Shown here: positions 2,345-25,438 of the stretch, one piece after another
Layout of the letters: every line of letters starts with the position of its first letter
Numbering within the stretch: the first letter of the stretch is position 1
Source: a virus
Virus record (IMG/VR): IMGVR_UViG_3300025133_006373
Location: 1-39,206 of that record
DNA: 39,206 nucleotides
Direction: 5' to 3' (one strand)
The notes under the pieces: model-generated
Databases searched by the model: none
The model's input: the letters and a program-made list of their open reading frames with translations, nothing else
What the model was told of the DNA's origin: nothing
Position numbers and translations under genes: made by a program

Positions 2345-3385
2345 CTACTTGTCTATCACGAAGAAAAATTCAACTAGATTTTTTTGTTGTTTTTTCATCT
2401 TTTTAGGTTGCATGCAAAGCTTGTGACTTTGGTCATAAACCTTCACTGTACCGTGTTTTTGGCTGGTTAAGAGCAAGTCACTAAATGAAATAGCATTTCG
2501 TGTACCGTTACTATAGGATAGGATGATTCTCTTGCAATCAAACTGTCCCAAGAGCTTGTCAAAATCATCTTTTACTGTTTTTTTCATATAAAATGCACCA
2601 GCACATTCTTGATTTTTTCGAAAACACACTCTATCTGGTCTTGGAAGAGCATAGGAATGATCCAAATCAGGCTTATCCCAGAGAACAACTGAATCGTTTA
2701 AGTGATAACAAGCATCATAAAGAACACCTGTAGTATAGGGTGGATCTAAATAGACGACATCTGCTTGAGTATTTTTAACATCAAAAATCTCGCAACATTC
2801 AACATCGCCTTTCTTTCCTGTTATGAGGGTTGGCATTTTGAATTCGACTGTTTTTTGTGATTTTGCTGTCCATTCGGCCAACGAACTCTTTTGATCATTT
2901 GTGCCATTAAAAACACTATTAAGTGCTTGGATCGCACTAAACAAAAGAGCATCTTTTTCTGGAGATGCTCCTAGTGTGTGGATATACTCAAAAGCAGCAT
3001 CTAATTTTTTAGCATTTGATTCTATAAACGCTCTTGGTCTCCAAACCGGAGCAGCGACTCCTCGGACTTGCCTTAAATACTTACCAGAATAGTTCTGAAA
3101 TAACCATCCGTCCTTTTCTGGTAGATTGTTTAAGGTGATGAGGGCCTTTTCAATTAAATCTTCATCAAAGCCATTTAAGAACACTCTTGCAAACAAAGCT
3201 GCAGAGGGCATTTTATCATTGGCGGTTACTTTGAAGCCTTGTTGTCTCATATGTGCCGATACTATTCCTGATCCAGAAAATCCATCAAAAAAAGTTTCAG
3301 CATTTGGAACCTCTTCTGTTAGTTTTTGAATGGTCTCTAGAAGCTTTCGCTTTGAGCCTTTAAAGCCTACTGTTTTGTATTTCAT
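2345..3385 (-). CDS. D12-class N6-adenine DNA methyltransferase (Dam-like)
   Basis: A 346-residue protein. The start at 3385 has GGAGGAAAA directly upstream; the frame stays open further upstream only because it reads through the tRNA-Lys gene. Methyltransferase signatures in alpha order are GSKRKLL near residue 10, the SAM-binding FxGSG motif (GFSGSG, 35-40) and the catalytic DPPY (214-217). It should methylate adenine N6 in double-stranded DNA and protect phage DNA from restriction or mark it. The recognition site cannot be deduced. No cognate endonuclease lies beside it, so it is probably an orphan enzyme. It is transcribed from the promoter at 3489-3516 after the tRNA. Confidence 0.9.
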   Translation of the reverse strand: MKYKTVGFKGSKRKLLETIQKLTEEVPNAETFFDGFSGSGIVSAHMRQQGFKVTANDKMPSAALFARVFLNGFDEDLIEKALITLNNLPEKDGWLFQNYSGKYLRQVRGVAAPVWRPRAFIESNAKKLDAAFEYIHTLGASPEKDALLFSAIQALNSVFNGTNDQKSSLAEWTAKSQKTVEFKMPTLITGKKGDVECCEIFDVKNTQADVVYLDPPYTTGVLYDACYHLNDSVVLWDKPDLDHSYALPRPDRVCFRKNQECAGAFYMKKTVKDDFDKLLGQFDCKRIILSYSNGTRNAISFSDLLLTSQKHGTVKVYDQSHKLCMQPKKMKKQQKNLVEFFFVIDK

Positions 3386-3402
3386 TTTTCCTCCGTATGA
3401 AA

Positions 3403-3478
3403 TGGTGGGTTGTATAGGATTCGAACCTATGACCGATCGATTAAAAGCCGACTGCTCTACCAGCTGAGCTAACAACCC
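3403..3478 (-). tRNA. tRNA-Lys (UUU)
   Basis: A complete 76-base cloverleaf can be folded on the minus strand. The acceptor stem is GGGTTGT/ACAACCC, the D arm GCTC/GAGC, and the anticodon loop CTTTTAA with anticodon UUU. The T arm is ATAGG/CCTAT around TTCGAAT, with discriminator A and an encoded CCA. The anticodon stem has G-U pairs at both ends. It is the first product of the promoter at 3489-3516. UUU reads AAA/AAG, which suits an AT-rich phage. Confidence 0.97.
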
Positions 3479-17615: not shown

Positions 17616-17662
17616 CTTTCCTCCGATGTTTGTAATATAACATGCTGGGCATGTTTGTCAAG
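17613..17662 (-). repeat. Promoter/RBS direct repeat, copy 2 of 2
   Basis: Matches 16156-16205 at 49 of 50 bases; the single difference weakens the spacer palindrome (GGCATGT instead of AGCATGT). Confidence 0.9.
17634..17661 (-). promoter_or_regulatory. Sigma70-like promoter
   Basis: Minus strand: TTGACA, 16 bp, TATATT, with the near-perfect ACATGCT/GGCATGT inverted repeat in the spacer. It drives 17031-17615 and the HNH-type gene. Confidence 0.75.
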
Positions 17663-18491
17663 CATTTTCTTTTAACATTTTTATTTGTTCTATTGTAAGC
17701 ATTAGATTATAAAGGTCTTCACCCCTATCTATCCTTCGCTCTATCTCTCTTGCTTCTTCTAACAAAAGGGTGTCTTTGTCCTTTGGAAGCTCTTTTATTA
17801 TTGACCATTCAAGTACTTCTTCTCCATGTTCATTGAAGTCTTGTTGGAGATTGTAGTTTGAATGTCGGTTTGCTCGTAAACCCCAGAGGTGAGATTTCCA
17901 GCGAAGTTCTCCTCTTGTTGTCTCGCCGATGTAAATCTTATTACTTAACACATTTTTTATTTGATAAATACATGCTGGTTGTTCGGTATTCTTTTGAGCA
18001 TGGTACTCGGCTTTCTTTTCTTTGACTTCGGGACGAGCATCATACTCGGCTTTTTGTTGTTTTATTCTTTCTTTGTTTTGAGCATACCACTCGGCAGCTC
18101 GTTGTTTTCTTCTTTCTTTGATTTCAGGACGAGCATAATACTCGGCTTGTTGTTGTTTTCTTCTTTCTTTGATTTCAGGACGAGCTTGATACTCGGCAGC
18201 TTGTTGTTTTCTTCTTTCTTTGTTTTGAGCATAATACTCGGCATTCCTTTCTTTGACTTCGGGACGAGTACGATACTCGGCATTGTATTGTTTTCTTCTT
18301 TCTTTGTTTTGAGCACGATACTCGGCAGTTTGTTGTTTTCTTCTTTCTTTGATTTCAGGACGAGCTAGATACTCGGCGGTGTATTGTTTTGTGCAAGATT
18401 TGCATTCGGAGCGATGTCCGTCTTTTTTTCTTTTATTTTTGTGAAATTCCGTTAAAGGCTTTTCAATTCCGCATTTTGAGCATTTCTTCAT
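17658..18491 (-). CDS. GIY-YIG homing endonuclease with zinc finger and repeat linker
   Basis: A 277-residue protein. Residues 1-35 form a zinc finger (CSKC ... CKSC). Residues about 40-168 are nine degenerate units of the type AEY-x-ARPEIKERRKQQ or AEY-x-AQNKERRKQ, a highly charged helical linker. The C-terminal GIY-YIG nuclease domain (about 172-255) has CIYQIKN ... KIYIGET and the Arg/Glu-rich core. The start overlaps the preceding stop as ATGA with GGAGGAAAG. Such enzymes cleave a DNA target and spread their own gene; the linker length probably varies between relatives. Confidence 0.88.
   Translation of the reverse strand: MKKCSKCGIEKPLTEFHKNKRKKDGHRSECKSCTKQYTAEYLARPEIKERRKQQTAEYRAQNKERRKQYNAEYRTRPEVKERNAEYYAQNKERRKQQAAEYQARPEIKERRKQQQAEYYARPEIKERRKQRAAEWYAQNKERIKQQKAEYDARPEVKEKKAEYHAQKNTEQPACIYQIKNVLSNKIYIGETTRGELRWKSHLWGLRANRHSNYNLQQDFNEHGEEVLEWSIIKELPKDKDTLLLEEAREIERRIDRGEDLYNLMLTIEQIKMLKENA
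18000..18385 (-). repeat. Coding tandem repeats in the GIY-YIG linker
   Basis: About nine imperfect units of 39-51 bp alternate between two types (ARPEIKERRKQQ and AQNKERRKQ). Near-identity of adjacent units at DNA level indicates recent expansion by slippage or unequal recombination. It is a protein-coding repeat, not a CRISPR array. Confidence 0.85.
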
Positions 18492-18708: not shown

Positions 18709-18737
18709 ATTATAACACAAAACACCGTTTTTGTCAA
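18709..18737 (-). promoter_or_regulatory. Sigma70-like promoter
   Basis: Minus strand: TTGACA, 17 bp, TATAAT with extended TG. Its -35 box overlaps the last codons of the PurA-like gene. Confidence 0.8.
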
Positions 18738-19732
18738 ATCATTTCTGGGCATTTTGAGAATTTAACTTGGCTAATTTTGCCAGTTGTTTGATCAAGACAT
18801 GAAGCAACATATTGCTTAAAGGAAGTAAGGTCATTGAATTCCTTAAGCTCTCCATGGTGAAATGCTTTATAAACTCCTGTGTCCATTAGAATGTCAACTT
18901 TGTTCATAATAATATTGGTGGCTCCGCTTACATTGATGGCATGAATTAGCATATCTAAGTTTAGCCAATTTACTTTTCTCTTGCGACCGGTTGTCACTCC
19001 AATTTCGCTTCCTACCTCTCCAATCTTTGCTAATTGTGGATCATTTAGAAGCTCTTCTGGGAACAGAGGGTCAATACCCGAGCGAGTATCATAAGCCTTA
19101 CAAGTTCCGTAAATACGCCTTATTTTTTGTGGTGGAAAGCCTAGAGAACATGCTCCATACGGTAAGGTAGTGGAAGATGTGACAAATGGGTAATTACCAT
19201 GGTTTACGTCCAAGTAAAAGCCCTGTGCTCCTTCGCAAAGTATGTTACCGTATAGTTTCTCATCCCAGAGAAATGCTTCGGGCAATACGTCTCTAGCTAA
19301 GGTACCTTTGCGTCCCATCTTATCTGCATAGCATGGTCCAATGCCCTTTGAAGTGGTACCGAGTCTCTTGGCTAAGAGTGCCTTATCTGCGTTGATGTGG
19401 CGATCTTGAACAATGTGGGCCCTAGGTGAAACCTTGACCAAAGAGATATCAAAACCATTCTTCTCTAAGTACTCCATTTCTCTCTTGAAAGAGTCAATAT
19501 GAACGACACATGCTGGTCCTATGACCGACTTAACGCCATGAAATACTCCGCTGGGTATTAGATGGGTTTTGTACCGCTTACCGTTCAAGAATACCGTATG
19601 GCCGGCATTGTTTCCTCCGGCCCAACGACATACAAAATCATATTCACCTTCTCTTACTAAGGCAGAGGTGACTTTGCCTTTTCCTGTATCTCCCCATGAG
19701 AGATCTGCTACGATGTCTACATAATTGATCAT
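18734..19732 (-). CDS. Adenylosuccinate synthetase family enzyme (PurA/PurZ-like)
   Basis: A 332-residue enzyme, the compact size of archaeal PurA and phage PurZ rather than bacterial PurA (about 430). The P-loop-like motif is WGDTGKGK: the catalytic aspartate of PurA (Asp15 here) is kept, but Thr replaces the Glu of the usual GDEGKGK, as in the GSTGKG of phage S-2L PurZ. Also present are NAGHT (His45), GTTSKGIGP, LCEGAQGF, TTGRKRK (substrate loop, about 247-253) and NKVD (277-280), a guanine-specificity motif implying GTP use. PurA joins IMP and aspartate; PurZ joins dGMP and aspartate for 2-aminoadenine DNA. The substrate here is uncertain. Start follows TAGGAGG. Confidence 0.9.
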   Translation of the reverse strand: MINYVDIVADLSWGDTGKGKVTSALVREGEYDFVCRWAGGNNAGHTVFLNGKRYKTHLIPSGVFHGVKSVIGPACVVHIDSFKREMEYLEKNGFDISLVKVSPRAHIVQDRHINADKALLAKRLGTTSKGIGPCYADKMGRKGTLARDVLPEAFLWDEKLYGNILCEGAQGFYLDVNHGNYPFVTSSTTLPYGACSLGFPPQKIRRIYGTCKAYDTRSGIDPLFPEELLNDPQLAKIGEVGSEIGVTTGRKRKVNWLNLDMLIHAINVSGATNIIMNKVDILMDTGVYKAFHHGELKEFNDLTSFKQYVASCLDQTTGKISQVKFSKCPEMI

Positions 19733-19755
19733 TTAATACCTCCTAGTATAATCAT

Positions 19756-19783
19756 ATTATAACATGTTGTGATCTTTTGTCAA
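19756..19783 (-). promoter_or_regulatory. Sigma70-like promoter
   Basis: Minus strand: TTGACA, 16 bp, TATAAT with extended TG and ACATGT before the -10. It drives the PurA-like gene and begins immediately after the U-tract of the upstream terminator. Confidence 0.85.
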
Positions 19784-19784
19784 G

Positions 19785-19815
19785 AAAAAAAACCCCCAAC
19801 CTTGCGGTTGAGGGC
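19785..19815 (-). terminator. Rho-independent terminator after uvsX
   Basis: Minus strand: a nine-pair stem CCCTCAACC/GGTTGGGGG with a GCAA tetraloop and one G-U pair, followed directly by eight T. The G-U pair makes the stem better on the minus strand than on the plus strand. It lies 25 bp after the uvsX stop and abuts the next promoter. Confidence 0.92.
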
Positions 19816-19840: not shown

Positions 19841-20941
19841 TTAGCTTTTTTCTTCGTCGAGCTTGATGCCTCTGACAATTGCTTCGTCCATAATGTCAAA
19901 CACTGTTGCTCTAAAATCGTCCTTCTTTAACATCTCAATCCACTTGGTGGCTTGAAATTTAATATCCTTGCCTTTAAGTGTGGTAATGGTATACCAAGCA
20001 CCTGCTTGCTTTAGACGATCTGTTCCAGAAAGCTTGATTGCTGTAAACCAAGATTCTTCATCTTGAATGCCAACACCCTCGCCCCACATAATCTTAAAGG
20101 TACAATTTGCCTTTAATGACCCGAAGCGGGATTTTTGGATTGTCGCTTTAACCTCTGAGCCGATTACTCTTCCAACATCATCATAAATGTATGATGCCTT
20201 AGACTTACGTCCCGTTAGCCATACCCTTAATGAAGAGAAGTATTCAATCGCCTTACCGCCGGGAGCAATAAAAGGCGTCGTCATAAGCTCAGCGATGTTT
20301 GTCGTAATGTTGGTCTTCAACTGATTAATTAAAAGCAATGTACACTGATTATTCGCTAGTGGAATAGTGAGCTTCGGAAATGCTTTTGCGAAGATCCTTG
20401 GCTTTACAGCCATCGTACTTTGTGGATTGAAGTCCGATTCTATTTCCTTCTCGGAAGATGTCGCAGCAATTGAGTCCCATATAAACAAGAACCTTTGTTC
20501 TGGATATGTGTCCATCAACATTTCAATAGATTCAAGCACTTTCTCTACAGAGATTGCCTGAAAATAAAGAAAGTTCTCTTCTATGTTTACCGATGCCTGT
20601 GTTAAAAAGTCAGGATCAACGGCGGACTCTGCATCAAAATAGACTACGAAGATGTCCTTATCTTGTGCTCTTCCTGCTATCTGAGCTGCCATGTAAGACT
20701 TTCCTGTTCCGGAAAGCCCAGCAATCTCAGTTATTTTTCCAATTGGAATTCCGGCTTTGCCCTTGATTGAGATAATAGAGTCAAGCCAGCGGGATCCGGT
20801 GGGGATCCAATCAACGACAGACGATGGATCGTTGCCGTTTCCAAGAGAGTGGGCGACTTCAAGTCCCGCTTTCTTGTTAAGTTTCTTTTTCATTTCATTA
20901 ATGTCAATTTTGCCCGGTTTCATGTTAATCACTTCTCCCAT
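19841..20941 (-). CDS. uvsX: UvsX/RecA-type recombinase
   Basis: A 366-residue strand-exchange protein. The Walker A is GLSGTGKS (75-82), the Walker B LFIWDSIAA near 153, and the L2-proximal LLINQLKTN segment matches RecA/UvsX. It forms filaments on single-stranded DNA for recombination-dependent replication and repair. The length is close to T4 UvsX (391). ATG 20941 follows AAAGGAGAACTA. It works with the gp32-like protein encoded upstream and ends at the terminator 19785-19815. A cognate loader (UvsY) is not recognised here. Confidence 0.92.
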   Translation of the reverse strand: MGEVINMKPGKIDINEMKKKLNKKAGLEVAHSLGNGNDPSSVVDWIPTGSRWLDSIISIKGKAGIPIGKITEIAGLSGTGKSYMAAQIAGRAQDKDIFVVYFDAESAVDPDFLTQASVNIEENFLYFQAISVEKVLESIEMLMDTYPEQRFLFIWDSIAATSSEKEIESDFNPQSTMAVKPRIFAKAFPKLTIPLANNQCTLLLINQLKTNITTNIAELMTTPFIAPGGKAIEYFSSLRVWLTGRKSKASYIYDDVGRVIGSEVKATIQKSRFGSLKANCTFKIMWGEGVGIQDEESWFTAIKLSGTDRLKQAGAWYTITTLKGKDIKFQATKWIEMLKKDDFRATVFDIMDEAIVRGIKLDEEKS

Positions 20942-21452
20942 TAGTTCTCCTTTTATTTAGTCTCATGATTCTTCTTTGTGTATCTCTTTTCTCTCGCTCA
21001 GTACCAACATACACCAATCTGGTACCGAATAGTTTATCAAACCTATCTGTTGTCACGCCCCAATTCATCTCTTGTGTAACTGCCATGTGATGGGCATAAT
21101 GCCATGGATAATTTTCTTTGCACCACTCCGGCTCTATATGTGCCCTCCTGTGTACATAATAGTATCGGAGGGCACCGGCGGTGATTCCGCCGTATAGAGC
21201 AAAGGAGAATGCTATGACTGGTAAATGTAAGATAGTTAAAATTATAATTGAAACTGTTTCCTTAAGGGAGGGGTTGTCAATGAAGAGATTGTTTCTAGAG
21301 TTTCTATGATGTTCATAAAAATGAAAAGCAAAAAACTTATTTTTCTTATTCTTTCCTAATCTGTGGAACAAGTATTTGTGTATTATCCATTCTAAAAATT
21401 GTGTATACACAAAACCTATGTAAAACAGTCCACAAACTAACAAAATCTCCAT
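20925..21452 (-). CDS. Fatty acid hydroxylase / sterol desaturase-like membrane protein
   Basis: A 175-residue integral membrane protein with the histidine clusters of the di-iron hydroxylase superfamily: HKYLFH (25-30), HFYEHH (44-49), a later HRRAH, and HYAHH, with hydrophobic segments at the N-terminus and near 75-95. The family uses O2 and two irons to hydroxylate or desaturate lipids, for example carotenoid or fatty acid hydroxylases. It is short but all histidine clusters are present. The start has only a GGGG-type site. It overlaps uvsX by 17 bp. It may modify host membrane lipids. Confidence 0.8.
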   Translation of the reverse strand: MEILLVCGLFYIGFVYTQFLEWIIHKYLFHRLGKNKKNKFFAFHFYEHHRNSRNNLFIDNPSLKETVSIIILTILHLPVIAFSFALYGGITAGALRYYYVHRRAHIEPEWCKENYPWHYAHHMAVTQEMNWGVTTDRFDKLFGTRLVYVGTEREKRDTQRRIMRLNKRRTNGRSD

Positions 21453-21491: not shown

Positions 21492-21671
21492 TTATTCCTC
21501 TGTTTCTTCTGTTTCTGCCGAGGTATCTTCTGCCTCTTCAGATTCTTCGGACTCTGCTGAAGTATCTTCTACTTCTTCTACTGCTGAGTCTGCTGCTGGT
21601 TCTGCTACGGGAGCTGAGTCAACCGACTCCTCTTCTCCACAACCAAATAGTAGTGCTGAAAAAATAATCAT
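21492..21671 (-). CDS. Short acidic lipoprotein (59 aa)
   Basis: Starts at ATG 21671 three bases after GGAGACG. A short hydrophobic signal MIIFSALLFGC carries a lipobox (LFGC, Cys11); the rest is low-complexity Glu/Ser/Ala/Thr with many acidic residues (EEVEDTSAESEE). Like the lipoprotein at 5142-6065, it lacks N-terminal positive charges. It would be a lipid-anchored, strongly negative peptide in the periplasm or at the surface. Possible roles include superinfection exclusion or spanin-like function, neither shown by sequence. Confidence 0.65.
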   Translation of the reverse strand: MIIFSALLFGCGEEESVDSAPVAEPAADSAVEEVEDTSAESEESEEAEDTSAETEETEE

Positions 21672-21697: not shown

Positions 21698-21724
21698 TGC
21701 CCTCTACAAAGCCGAGGGCGGGCT
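21698..21724 (-). repeat. 27-bp hairpin repeat, copy 1, 3' of the GHKL gene
   Basis: Identical to 23431-23457. It forms GCCCTC/GAGGGC with a nine-base loop. It lies five bases beyond the GHKL gene stop, where a terminator or RNA-stabilising hairpin would be, but has no following U-tract. Confidence 0.85.
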
Positions 21725-21728
21725 ATTT

Positions 21729-23369
21729 TTATGCTGCTTTATTATACCGTGCTCTTTCTTTTACAGTTGGTTTAAAATCAAGTAGCTGCTCATGGGTTTC
21801 TGCTAGATTTAAAATTTTAATTTTTATAGAAATGTCACCAATCTTGACAGACTCGTTTATTTTTTCAACATGCTTTTTCATTGAGGAAGTTGGAGGAGCA
21901 CCCAGTGCTAAGATAAAATCAACTATTTTGTCTTCATTCACGAACTGAAACCTTTTATCTTCAATCAAATATGGTATGTAAGATACAATCTGTCCTACTG
22001 TTTTTGAAGGGTCTGAACTATCTCTTTTAAATTCGTGTGGTATATTTTCGCTGACAAGGTCTAGTTTAAAGCCGCAGTTTGGAAGCTGATATTCTTTAAT
22101 AACCATTTTTTTTATTTCATGAGGCTGGTGTTTCTTTCTCAAAACAGAGCACTCAGTGTTGTAGTATCTATCACGTATAATTTCTTCTCTGTGTCTGCAT
22201 ATTTTTTCTTTATCACTGGTAGATCCCTGATCTCCATCCTCGCTATTTATTTGTATGATTTTATCTGTCCATCTTGCAAACTCTTCTTTCCAGTACTTTT
22301 TAAAATCAAACAAGGCGTTCGCATCTTCAATTGTTCTTATTTGTTTATCCGGACCCATAGTCAAGCACTTATCAATAAAATCTCTTGGGCATTTTAACTC
22401 AATCACAAGGTGTCCTAATTGGAAGTTTTTGGATGGCCTTAGTCCTGATAGGAGTTGGCTTGTGCAGTCTTTATTGTTTCTCAAGATACACAATCCGCCG
22501 GATGAGGAGCTGGTGCCCAAAGAACCCTTTGAAGCAATTCTAATAAATCTGTAATGACATTTAAATTGTTGAGTGCCAAATGGACAAACAGTGTGTTCAA
22601 TCCAACCACCCTCCTTCATGTCATCAAAATATACCTTATCTTGGTATTTTTCTTTCACATCGAAGCTCGGCCCTTTTGGATTAAGCAGAGTACTGTTTAT
22701 GACAATTTTAACTTTATCAGAGTTTATCAAATGTCTATAAATAAAGGCAAGACTTTTCTTATTTTGTAATATTGACTTATTAAACTTTTTAATATTTCCG
22801 CTTATTTCATATTTTATTTTTCTCAAAATAACAATTGTGCCTTCCTGTTCTTCTTCGAAGAAAGAAATAACACGTTCATCTGGTGCTTGTTCTGATTCTA
22901 GCAGATCGAACTTATATAGTCTTTCCCAATTGTTGCTATTGGGATTATCGTTTAACATTTTAAGATCAAAATAAGCTCGGTTTAATTTTTGATCTTCTAT
23001 TGTTTTTGAATAAACTTCTAATGAGTGTTTTGCTAGGCCAACAGCAGCAGAATTCATTCCAACGCCCTTACACCCAAGAGCGTCTTTGTTGTTTTCTTTC
23101 TTTATAGATGATCCCATTTTTAACGCTGCTCTGAGTGTTTCGAAAGTCATGCCATCCCCATCATCATAGAAATAAAGGTCAAATGAGTCCTTATCTTCAA
23201 CGGTTTCGATTTTAACCATTTGTGCGTTTGCGTCAATAGAATTATCAACAAACTCGGCCATAATGGTGTGCATGTTGGATAAACTCCTAGATTGTTCTAA
23301 TAGTGTTTTATAATTTGGAGACATATTATTCTGGTTGGTTTTAAAGTCTTGGTTTTTTAAATTATTCAT
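21729..23369 (-). CDS. GHKL (MORC/MutL-like) ATPase with probable PD-(D/E)XK nuclease domain
   Basis: A 546-residue protein. The N-terminal Bergerat ATPase is clear: N-box AEFVDNSIDANA (Glu39, Asn43), G1 box DDGDGM (69-74) and G2 box GCKGVGMNSA (99-108), in the arrangement seen in MutL, Hsp90 and prokaryotic MORC-like proteins. The C-terminal part has LDLVSENIPHEFKR (Asp437, Glu446, Lys448) followed by a helix with VGQIVSYI, which fits a PD-(D/E)XK nuclease core. Similar ATPase-nuclease proteins are known from bacterial restriction and defence loci. The start follows AAAAGGA. Identical hairpin repeats flank the gene. A role in anti-defence or phage competition is inference. Confidence 0.75.
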   Translation of the reverse strand: MNNLKNQDFKTNQNNMSPNYKTLLEQSRSLSNMHTIMAEFVDNSIDANAQMVKIETVEDKDSFDLYFYDDGDGMTFETLRAALKMGSSIKKENNKDALGCKGVGMNSAAVGLAKHSLEVYSKTIEDQKLNRAYFDLKMLNDNPNSNNWERLYKFDLLESEQAPDERVISFFEEEQEGTIVILRKIKYEISGNIKKFNKSILQNKKSLAFIYRHLINSDKVKIVINSTLLNPKGPSFDVKEKYQDKVYFDDMKEGGWIEHTVCPFGTQQFKCHYRFIRIASKGSLGTSSSSGGLCILRNNKDCTSQLLSGLRPSKNFQLGHLVIELKCPRDFIDKCLTMGPDKQIRTIEDANALFDFKKYWKEEFARWTDKIIQINSEDGDQGSTSDKEKICRHREEIIRDRYYNTECSVLRKKHQPHEIKKMVIKEYQLPNCGFKLDLVSENIPHEFKRDSSDPSKTVGQIVSYIPYLIEDKRFQFVNEDKIVDFILALGAPPTSSMKKHVEKINESVKIGDISIKIKILNLAETHEQLLDFKPTVKERARYNKAA

Positions 23370-23430
23370 TGTGTGTCCTTTTAGGTAAAGTTGCGGTATT
23401 GTGTTTTAATTCTAAACCTGCTGAAAAAGA

Positions 23431-23457
23431 TGCCCTCTACAAAGCCGAGGGCGGGCT
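23431..23457 (-). repeat. 27-bp hairpin repeat, copy 2, 5' of the GHKL gene
   Basis: Identical to 21698-21724. It follows the SSB gene stop by nine bases. On the minus strand the GCCCTC/GAGGGC hairpin is followed by ATCTTTTTC, a weak U-tract, so this copy could act as a partial terminator after ssb. Confidence 0.85.
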
Positions 23458-23465
23458 TGGATCTT

Positions 23466-24224
23466 TTATGATTCCAATAACTTGTCAACTGCCATGTCAA
23501 CTGAGTCACGATTACCATACTTTTCTGTTTCTGAGCTTCTACCTTCGGAGGAGGAATCTGTAGAAAGGAAATCATCCAAAATTGCTTGAACTTCATCGGA
23601 GGTCTTACGTTCGAAGATCTTAGAGATTTCCGGAACAGAGTCTAGAAGTGTTTGGCAATCGGCAACTTCGTCATCACAAAGTGGAGACGGGCGTCGTCGT
23701 GGTTTCAATTGAGTTTTTGGAAAGGATCCGGGAGTACCGGGAACTGTGTAGTTAAGTACAATATCAGTTCCACTATTGGGATCAGTGATATCACCATAAT
23801 CAGGGTCAAGAACAAGTCCAAGAAGGTTTTCATAAGCGGTCTTACCATAAGCCCAAATACGAACCCCTCTATCTTCTTCGCCTCGTACCAAAATTGGAGA
23901 GAAGTACCGCTTACGAACAAAAAGCTTCTTTGCTTCTCGTTTTAAATCGTCTTCGTTCTTCTCAACACCTTCCTTCCACAAAGCGGAAGCAAAGTTACAA
24001 ATAGGACAATCTTCGCCATGATTCTTCTTAGGACAGAGGATTCCGGGATTCTTTCCTACATTGTAGTGAAAATGAAATTCCTTGAAGGGGTCGCCGTCCG
24101 CTGTTGGTACGATGCGGATAGTTTGATCGCCTTGTTGAGGTTTCCACTTGGTGTTATCACCTTTCTTCGCACCGTGCTTCGATGCTTCGAGCTTAGCTCG
24201 CATTGCTTCAATATTAATAGCCAT
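23466..24224 (-). CDS. gp32-like single-stranded DNA-binding protein
   Basis: A 252-residue protein resembling T4 gene 32. A basic N-terminus (about 1-30) for cooperativity is followed by the core with a zinc site: His51, Cys64, Cys73 and Cys76, where His-x12-Cys and Cys-x2-Cys match T4 gp32 spacing (Cys-x8-Cys instead of x9). The C-terminus is acidic and serine-rich, the usual docking tail for replication partners. It coats single-stranded DNA for the helicase, polymerase and UvsX. ATG 24224 follows AAGGAG after a 218-base AU-rich leader. Confidence 0.9.
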   Translation of the reverse strand: MAINIEAMRAKLEASKHGAKKGDNTKWKPQQGDQTIRIVPTADGDPFKEFHFHYNVGKNPGILCPKKNHGEDCPICNFASALWKEGVEKNEDDLKREAKKLFVRKRYFSPILVRGEEDRGVRIWAYGKTAYENLLGLVLDPDYGDITDPNSGTDIVLNYTVPGTPGSFPKTQLKPRRRPSPLCDDEVADCQTLLDSVPEISKIFERKTSDEVQAILDDFLSTDSSSEGRSSETEKYGNRDSVDMAVDKLLES

Positions 24225-24782: not shown

Positions 24783-24862
24783 GTATTTTTTTGAGTTTTT
24801 TTCTCTTTCTTTTCGAGATTCTTCCAATAGTAATTGGAGTACCCTAGGCTTGGTTTTATCAT
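24779..24862 (-). CDS. Basic microprotein (27 aa)
   Basis: A short frame fits exactly between two promoters. The ATG at 24862 follows GGAAGG within the 65-bp repeated promoter/RBS module, the same start context as the 147-residue gene 24928-25371. The peptide begins MIKPSLGYSNYYWKNLEKK and ends in a Lys-rich tail; its TGA overlaps the TTGACA of the next promoter. It could be a real microprotein or the remnant of a deleted gene. Confidence 0.45.
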   Translation of the reverse strand: MIKPSLGYSNYYWKNLEKKEKKTQKNT

Positions 24863-24923
24863 TTTTGCCTTCCTTGTCTATACAATATAACATGTTGTGA
24901 AACTTTGTCAAATTATTTTTTTA
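24859..24923 (-). repeat. 65-bp promoter/RBS direct repeat, copy 1 of 2
   Basis: Matches 25368-25432 at 64 of 65 bases. It includes the start codon, Shine-Dalgarno, -10, -35 and an upstream A/T tract (UP-element-like). The two copies bracket gene 24928-25371. Confidence 0.92.
24884..24911 (-). promoter_or_regulatory. Sigma70-like promoter
   Basis: Minus strand: TTGACA, 16 bp, TATATT with extended TG, and an A-rich upstream stretch. It drives the 27-residue frame. Confidence 0.8.
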
Positions 24924-24927
24924 TTTT

Positions 24928-25371
24928 TTATTGTACTTGCCTAAGAACCCAAGCCCTTACGTCATCACCATGAAGCGGTTGTTTTTTAGGTGGTGTCCAC
25001 CATGGAATATTGCTCCATTGTTGCCTCAACCTACCAGCAAGTTCTGACGAATCTTGTATGTCTGTAATCATCTCAACTTTTTCAACTGCTCTGTTAAACA
25101 GTATTTCAAGTTGTTGCTGTTGGTCTGCTTCTGTTTTGAAGCACAAAATTTCTGGTTGGTCTTTTAGGAGAGACTGTCTGTTTTGGACTCCGCCTCGACT
25201 AATCCGATTTAAAAGTCTTGTTTCCGGTGAATATCTAGCGTTTTTGCTATTTTTAAGAAGCTCGTCAAGTTTAGTTTTGTGTACAGACCAGTCTTTTCCC
25301 TGTGGGGATTTAAGATACCACATTCTTTCTTTTGTGTCCCATTGAATGCGACGATTAAAATTCTTGTTCAT
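24928..25371 (-). CDS. Unknown protein (147 aa) in repeat-bracketed cassette
   Basis: Starts at ATG 25371 behind GGAAGG. The N-terminus is basic and aromatic (NRRIQWDTKERMWYLKSPQGKDW), the middle is a Gln/Glu-rich helix, and the C-terminus has WWTPPKKQPLHGDD and a final helix. No domain is recognised. It has its own promoter and lies between the two 65-bp repeats, suggesting an exchangeable accessory gene. Confidence 0.6.
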   Translation of the reverse strand: MNKNFNRRIQWDTKERMWYLKSPQGKDWSVHKTKLDELLKNSKNARYSPETRLLNRISRGGVQNRQSLLKDQPEILCFKTEADQQQQLEILFNRAVEKVEMITDIQDSSELAGRLRQQWSNIPWWTPPKKQPLHGDDVRAWVLRQVQ

Positions 25372-25432
25372 TTTTGCCTTCCTTGTCTATACAATTTAAC
25401 ATGTTGTGAAACTTTGTCAAATTATTTTTTTA
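25368..25432 (-). repeat. 65-bp promoter/RBS direct repeat, copy 2 of 2
   Basis: Differs from 24859-24923 by one base, which changes the -10 from TATATT to TAAATT. Confidence 0.92.
25393..25420 (-). promoter_or_regulatory. Sigma70-like promoter
   Basis: Minus strand: TTGACA, 16 bp, TAAATT with extended TG. It drives 24928-25371 and is probably weaker than its repeat copy. Confidence 0.7.
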
Positions 25433-25438
25433 AGTTTT

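What the first reader, a model, noticed from the sequence alone, without database searches (positions are those of the whole stretch)
21698..23457. GHKL ATPase fused to a PD-(D/E)XK-like nuclease, bracketed by identical 27-bp hairpin repeats
The gene has intact ATP-binding boxes (Glu39/Asn43, DDGDGM, GCKGVGMN) and a C-terminal Asp437...Glu446-x-Lys448 followed by a Gln-containing helix, the layout of a restriction-type nuclease core. MORC/MutL-like ATPases linked to nucleases are known from bacterial restriction and defence loci. Finding one in a phage replication region, between identical hairpins, suggests a mobile module that could cut competitor or host DNA or counter defence.
Basis: partly seen in the sequence, partly recalled or inferred. 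Interest (0 to 1): 0.85.

Follow-up and report, generated by a model that had tools for sequence, protein, structure and literature searches.

The report
Phage ATPase gene in RNA-knot-flanked cassette
A T4-like virus of bacteria carries one extra gene, for a MORC-type ATPase with a probable DNA-cutting tail, slotted in between two identical copies of a conserved RNA-knot sequence that close relatives have only once; the protein type is known from bacterial immunity, but the knot-bracketed slot in a phage is new.

Summary
The gene is on the minus strand (23369-21729, 546 aa). Residues ~20-345 form an intact GHKL+S5 ATPase of the MORC/paraMORC type (HMM and fold evidence). The C-terminal nuclease is plausible but unproven. 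D437-E446-x-K448-Q460 sit in the right order on an alpha-beta-beta-beta-alpha-beta string.

The 27-bp repeats are real (chance ~0) but are not transposon ends. Each is a candidate H-type RNA pseudoknot that lies just after the stop codon of the gp32/ssb gene in most relatives, with compensatory changes. Close relatives (L004 and others) lack the gene and keep one copy, so this is a 1733-bp insertion with a duplicated knot. In relatives the same ssb-uvsX slot holds GmrSD-like restriction proteins, methylases, Clp proteases and other GHKL proteins.

Best reading: an accessory anti-DNA gene swapped in by recombination at a conserved regulatory RNA element, resembling PeSL shuffling in T4 phages. 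It works like GHKL-Shedu/paraMORC3 but fails the Shedu profile: a new variant of a known kind. The conserved 3' pseudoknot is the most novel part.

The parts
21729..23369 (-). Gene for a 546-aa GHKL ATPase with a C-terminal PD-(D/E)XK-like domain (the cassette's only gene)
   Evidence: ORF; HATPase_c_3 8e-18; AF2 + Foldseek top hits MORC2/MORC3 about 1e-16; motifs invariant in distant relatives
22335..23312 (-). GHKL + S5 ATPase module, about residues 20-345 (E39, N43, D69, G71, G73, G99, G104, T178, K342)
   Evidence: Alignments A1 and A3; model
21732..22319 (-). C-terminal region, about residues 351-546; candidate nuclease residues D437 (codon 22059-22061), E446 (22032-22034), K448 (22026-22028), Q460 (21990-21992)
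   Evidence: Sequence; secondary-structure order in a low-confidence model; motif statistics; no HMM or homologue
23431..23457 (-). Repeat copy 1: candidate H-type pseudoknot just after the ssb stop codon (S1 AAGCC/GGCTT including one base at 23458, S2 GCCCTC/GAGGGC), followed by ATCTTTTT
21698..21724 (-). Repeat copy 2: the same element after the ATPase gene, before the small acidic protein gene; S1 one pair shorter, no T-run
21698..23430 (-). Inserted unit of 1733 bp (ATPase gene plus one repeat copy) absent from L004 and other relatives
   Evidence: BLASTN of the empty site, 27-nt overlap at L004:2045-2071
23466..24224 (-). ssb (gp32-like) gene upstream of the cassette
   Evidence: Pfam gp32 1e-16, PHROG 1192 4e-28
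21492..21671 (-). Small acidic, lipoprotein-like ORF (59 aa) directly after repeat copy 2; it directly follows the single repeat in empty relatives
20925..21452 (-). Fatty-acid-hydroxylase-like gene, marker of the close clade
   Evidence: PF04116 1e-10
19841..20941 (-). uvsX recombinase, downstream border of the cargo slot
   Evidence: PHROG 97 1e-58

Best explanation
The gene is an accessory, single-protein ATP-dependent DNA effector carried by a T4-like phage. SHOWN: an intact GHKL+S5 ATPase module of the MORC/paraMORC type, and a 1733-bp insertion between ssb and uvsX at a conserved RNA element that follows ssb and is duplicated at the insertion, with empty-site relatives. SUPPORTED BY COMPARISON: the ssb-uvsX interval is a cargo slot filled in relatives by restriction, modification and other GHKL genes; the element is a conserved H-type pseudoknot; cassettes are exchanged by homologous recombination at such regulatory elements, as proposed for PeSLs of T4 phages. 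INFERRED: ATP binding closes the GHKL dimer around DNA and lets the C-terminal PD-(D/E)XK-like domain nick or cut DNA that differs from the phage's own (competitor phage, plasmid or host DNA). The gene is read with the ssb/uvsX genes, as no promoter of its own is evident. The pseudoknot most likely ends or protects the 3' end of the ssb transcript.
For: ATPase. Insertion and empty site; L004 has flanks 89-92% identical and one repeat. Independent cargo in the same slot: GmrSD_N in L008 with a diverged second repeat; 51 cargo ORFs with D12 methylase 7, GmrSD_N 5, Clp 5, HATPase_c_3 2, ParB_N 2, MunI 1. Pseudoknot: 45 of 79 ssb loci score >=27 versus 5 of 59 after uvsX and 1 of 400 shuffles; covariation. 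Zero differences to L001 over 2343 nt around the cassette against 0.5-2% or more in flanks. Same exchange at another repeat: 147-aa gene absent from L001. Precedent for GHKL+PD-(D/E)XK in phage defence: VcSduA, both active sites needed (PMC12137116); paraMORC3 (PMC2292703). Motif order and rarity.
Against: C-terminal model pLDDT 41 and no meaningful fold match; no profile hit to any nuclease family, Shedu included; no homologue of the domain. No methylase or immunity gene next to it, so how the phage would spare its own DNA is unknown. Copy 1 and copy 2 of the repeat are identical, which also fits simple duplication without exchange between phages.
Confidence: 0.5

Rival explanations
1. The protein is a DNA-manipulating MORC/MutL-like ATPase without nuclease activity (C-terminus is a DNA- or protein-binding domain). 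It would help the phage's own recombination or repair with ssb and UvsX, or blunt host defence, instead of cutting DNA.
For: Position between ssb and uvsX; C-terminus unassigned by every profile and fold search; many GHKL relatives have no nuclease tail.
Against: Most close relatives lack the gene, so it is not part of the core recombination set; motif D437/E446/K448/Q460 with alpha-beta-beta-beta-alpha-beta order; other cargo in the slot is enriched in restriction and modification genes.
Confidence: 0.27
2. The pseudoknot is a gp32-responsive translational operator: ssb protein nucleates on it and coats the adjacent A/U-rich leader, repressing the next gene (uvsX in knot-uvsX genomes, cargo or the small protein here). 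Cassettes keep a copy at each junction and so stay under this control.
For: Knot, then A/U-rich stretch and Shine-Dalgarno of the next gene, the layout of the T4 gene 32 operator (PMC535899); in 12 of 75 loci uvsX starts within 150 nt of ssb; after insertion each downstream gene again has one knot ahead of it.
Against: In T4 and RB69 the operator precedes gene 32, here it follows ssb; many copies end in a U-run typical of terminators; a terminator after gene 32 is predicted in most T4-like genomes (PMC1524935); no binding data.
Confidence: 0.15
3. The repeats are the ends of an autonomous mobile element that moves the gene.
For: Perfect 27-bp repeats at both edges; clean insertion.
Against: The repeat pre-exists in empty relatives as part of the ssb 3' region; the cassette holds a single ORF and no recombinase; a scan of viral contigs with the clade's motif found no other record with two copies.
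Confidence: 0.05
4. Ancestral gene lost in relatives: the filled state is old and the empty sites arose by recombination between the two repeats.
For: Recombination between perfect repeats would leave exactly one copy.
Against: All other close-clade loci covering the site lack the gene, and only the two nearly identical records carry it; the gene has lower G+C (0.34) than ssb and uvsX (0.42-0.44).
Confidence: 0.12

Closest known systems
GHKL-Shedu (VcSduA; PMC12137116) / paraMORC3 (PMC2292703)
   Same: One protein with N-terminal GHKL ATPase, S5/middle domain and C-terminal PD-(D/E)XK-type nuclease (candidate here); can stand alone without a helicase or methylase
   Different: C-terminus does not match SduA_C/DUF4263; nuclease unproven; sits in a phage replication region, not a bacterial island
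MzaB and other MORC-like ATPases of MZA/restriction operons
   Same: Same ATPase module, closest by profile (NF041932, E 2e-13)
   Different: Far below cut-off (49.8 versus 850 bits), different C-terminus, no MZA neighbours
PeSL-mediated modular shuffling in T4-type phages (Arbiol 2010, Comeau 2014; cited in PMC3950731 and PMC4503421)
   Same: Short repeated regulatory stem-loops at the edges of exchanged genes in T4-like phages
   Different: The element here is a pseudoknot tied to ssb and has no early promoter attached
T4/RB69 gene 32 translational operator pseudoknot (PMC535899)
   Same: About 28-nt H-type pseudoknot tied to the gp32 gene, followed by an A/U-rich leader and ribosome-binding site
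   Different: Lies 3' of the gp32-type gene, not in its 5' leader; function not tested

Membership tests
MORC/paraMORC GHKL ATPases | GHKL motifs I-IV (E/N box, DxGxG, GxxGxG, T) | tested here: met
MORC/paraMORC GHKL ATPases | S5 domain with conserved lysine after the GHKL domain | tested here: met
   K342 invariant; MORC2/MORC3 fold match over about 400 columns
Shedu (SduA, including GHKL type I-D) | SduA_C/DUF4263 domain (PF14082) | tested here: not met
   No match at E<=10 in the record; none in Pfam scan of the C-terminus
PD-(D/E)XK nucleases | alpha-beta-beta-beta-alpha-beta core with D and (D/E)xK on adjacent strands | tested here: inconclusive
   Order seen in a pLDDT-41 model; fold search uninformative; motif rare in shuffles but post hoc
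PD-(D/E)XK nucleases | Conservation of catalytic residues in homologues | not testable with these tools
   Only an identical copy (L001) shares the domain
MzaB / BbrUII-HgiDII restriction enzymes | Score above NCBIfam cut-off | tested here: not met
   49.8 versus 850 and 35.9 versus 550 bits
PeSL elements | Stem-loop at gene boundaries associated with gene gain or loss | tested here: met
PeSL elements | Early promoter joined to the stem-loop | tested here: not met
   No sigma-70-like site at either repeat
H-type pseudoknot | Two interleaved stems with compensatory changes | tested here: met
   (covariation counted for one clade of 11 sequences; S1 variation at two of five pairs)
T4 gene 32 operator | Located in the 5' leader of gene 32 | tested here: not met
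   Element lies after the ssb stop codon
Transposon or homing element | Encodes its own recombinase or homing endonuclease within the unit | tested here: not met
   Single ORF in the cassette; repeat pre-exists in empty relatives

The most novel reading that the evidence does not exclude
A conserved pseudoknot at the 3' end of phage ssb genes is both a gp32-sensing control element for the genes behind it (uvsX, or inserted anti-DNA cargo) and the joint at which such cargo is swapped, so that a phage's weapons and its recombination genes stay tuned to the level of single-stranded DNA.
Probability: 0.13. Interest if true: 0.75.

Novelty: new variant of a known kind. Interest (0 to 1): 0.5.

Why it matters
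It puts a GHKL effector, probably with its own nuclease, a type so far known from bacterial immunity, into the core replication region of a T4-like phage. It also shows a concrete, testable way in which such phages load these genes: recombination at a conserved RNA element beside ssb. The ssb-uvsX slot is a ready place to look for phage-borne restriction, modification and counter-defence genes. The conserved 3' pseudoknot makes the old question of gp32-controlled translation outside T4 directly testable.

Tried and rejected
(1) Homologues of the C-terminus: tblastn in phages and plasmids, peptide scans of viral contigs, profile scans of viral and genome contigs, a degenerate G2-box pattern, Pfam/PHROG/PADLOC/PDB: nothing beyond the identical L001 copy. 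phrog_3514 (E 0.0065, linker region only) was judged uninformative. (2) Structure of the C-terminus: single-sequence AF2 too poor to search. (3) NucS-like nuclease by profile comparison: the script caught only one NucS_C template and gave no support, so the test is void. (4) L235, a 520-aa cargo with a NucS_C-like tail in the neighbouring slot, looked like a degenerate GHKL+nuclease. hhalign was suggestive in one run (E 4.5e-4) but weak with other settings and against controls (E 0.012; L013 cargo 0.0036; other controls from 0.04), so it is not used as evidence. (5) Shedu membership rejected. (6) Stop-codon readthrough driven by the knot: the extensions differ and soon end in the relatives inspected, rejected. 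(7) Rfam: no match to the knot. (8) The knot score is not perfect: after uvsX 5 of 59 also pass, and L015, L019 and L021, which look knot-like by eye, are missed by the scoring grid.

Full report
WHAT IS THERE. The window is the whole of a 39,206-base virus record, possibly a fragment of a larger genome. It carries a gp32-type ssb (23466-24224), UvsX (19841-20941), an adenylosuccinate-synthetase-like gene (18734-19732) and a fatty-acid-hydroxylase-like gene (20925-21452), all on the minus strand. The gene in question is 23369..21729, minus strand, 546 aa. It lies between two perfect 27-nt repeats (23431-23457 and 21698-21724). The repeat core has 0 expected matches in shuffled sequence.

THE ATPase IS REAL. 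Residues 33-139 match HATPase_c_3 at 8e-18. MzaB, BbrUII-type restriction and MutL models follow, far below their cut-offs, and solved MORC4, MORC3 and MORC2 by sequence. An AF2 model with a 28-sequence alignment is confident over the GHKL core and matches MORC2 and MORC3 ATPase modules at about 1e-16. The nucleotide-binding motifs and the S5 lysine (K342) are invariant or nearly so across distant relatives. Bacterial relatives lie in operons with Dcm, Vsr, Z1, HNH and DEAD-box genes.

THE NUCLEASE IS LIKELY BUT NOT SHOWN. D437, E446, K448 and Q460 are present. The loose motif is common by chance (64% of shuffles); the full hDh..EhK..GQ string is rare (0.06%), with the caveat that it was chosen after the fact. 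The single-sequence model gives helix, strand, strand ending at D437, strand with E446-x-K448, helix, strand, the order expected of PD-(D/E)XK, but at pLDDT 41, and fold search gave nothing meaningful. In the full-length model this region is equally poor. No HMM matches.

THE REPEATS ARE AN ssb ELEMENT, DUPLICATED AT AN INSERTION. In the close relative L004, flanks 89-92% identical to the window meet at a single copy of the repeat. L004 703-2071 aligns to window 24802-23433 and L004 2045-3979 to window 21724-19754, overlapping by exactly 27 nt. L005, L006, L007, L234, L237, L238, L241 and others have the same empty arrangement, ssb - repeat - small protein - hydroxylase. L008 carries a GmrSD_N protein in the same slot, with a second, diverged repeat copy at its far edge. 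The window and L001 show no difference over 2343 nt around the cassette (23748 to 21404), although flanking segments differ by about 0.6% (25.4-28.9 kb), 2% (hydroxylase-uvsX) and more (the purA-like gene). This fits recent exchange of the block, but the divergence is mosaic and no formal test was made. Gain is favoured over loss because only these two near-identical records carry the gene; a deletion between the repeats would give the same picture and is kept as a rival.

THE ELEMENT IS A CANDIDATE PSEUDOKNOT. Upstream of the hairpin, AAGCC can pair with GGCTT inside its loop: S1 AAGCC/GGCTT, S2 GCCCTC/GAGGGC, no spacer between the stems. A search of the 62 nt after the ssb stop codon gives a knot score of 27 or more in 45 of 79 ssb loci, against 5 of 59 after uvsX and 1 of 400 shuffles. 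Stem sequences change together between clades: AAGCC/GGCTT, ACGG/CCGT, AAGTC/GACTT, GACCG/CGGTC, ATGCCG/CGGCAT, TCCGCC/GGCGGA. In one clade of 11 sequences 97% of cells pair and 15 cells change on both sides (shuffles 4.8); sliding the partner by 1-3 columns drops pairing to 31-47%. Rfam has no match. Many copies are followed by a U-run, and T4-like phages have a predicted terminator after gene 32 in 5 of 6 genomes (PMC1524935). Ending or protecting the transcript is therefore the simplest function; a gp32-responsive operator like the one 5' of T4 gene 32 (PMC535899) is a live alternative.

THE SLOT. Between ssb and uvsX the relatives carry from about 50 bp to 3 kb. Among 51 cargo ORFs: D12 methylase 7, GmrSD_N 5, Clp protease 5, HATPase_c_3 2 (L041, L055), ParB_N 2, MunI restriction 1. 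In L001 the next junction, between uvsX and the purA-like gene, carries an MvaI/BcnI restriction enzyme and a methylase inserted at a terminator-promoter composite. Another gene of the window (24928-25371) is bracketed by a 71-nt promoter repeat and is absent from L001, which keeps one copy. Exchange at short regulatory repeats thus recurs in this phage group, as described for PeSLs (known here through PMC3950731 and PMC4503421; the original papers were not held).

HOW IT MOST LIKELY WORKS. By analogy with VcSduA, where the GHKL glutamate and the nuclease lysine are both needed for phage defence (PMC12137116), ATP binding would close a dimer on DNA and license the C-terminal domain to cut. The target is unknown; foreign or host DNA is inferred from the company the gene keeps. 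For membership: MORC/paraMORC-type GHKL ATPase, met; Shedu by profile, not met; PD-(D/E)XK, inconclusive; PeSL, one feature met and one not met.

VERDICT. It is a new variant of a known kind, together with a conserved, apparently undescribed 3' RNA element that deserves its own study.

Noticed in passing
24859-24929 and 25368-25438: A 71-nt repeat (96% identical) carrying a TTGACA..TATATT-type promoter brackets a 147-aa ORF (24928-25371); the sister record L001 lacks the ORF and keeps one repeat copy.
   Followed up: partly
19754-19815; L001:8617-10155: Terminator plus perfect TTGACA-16-TATAAT promoter after uvsX; in L001 an MvaI/BcnI restriction enzyme gene and an N4/N6 DNA methylase gene are inserted exactly there.
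   Followed up: partly
L041:3223-4752; L055:6858-8423; L019:3423-4973: Other GHKL (HATPase_c_3 or MzaB-like) proteins in or next to the same ssb-uvsX region of related phages, without the D437/E446/K448 type of tail.
   Followed up: partly
L034:2839-2872: A second pseudoknot-like element (AGCC-A-TGGAGCAG-GGCT-TAAA-CTGCTCCA) just before uvsX, after a 377-aa cargo gene.
   Followed up: no
L235:5413-6972: A 520-aa cargo protein between hydroxylase and uvsX with a NucS_C-like tail and a possibly degenerate GHKL-like N-terminus.
   Followed up: partly
18734-19732: Adenylosuccinate synthetase-like gene matching PHROG 1211, the PurZ-like family linked to 2-aminoadenine DNA; whether this phage makes modified DNA was not examined.
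   Followed up: no
2345-3478: D12-class adenine methylase (PF02086 1e-16) whose listed TTG start runs into a tRNA gene (3406-3478); the true start is probably further downstream.
   Followed up: no
17658-18491: 277-aa ORF with many degenerate repeats of an ARPEIKERRKQ..AEY type ahead of a GIY-YIG-like end; the repeat region differs strongly in length from L001.
   Followed up: no
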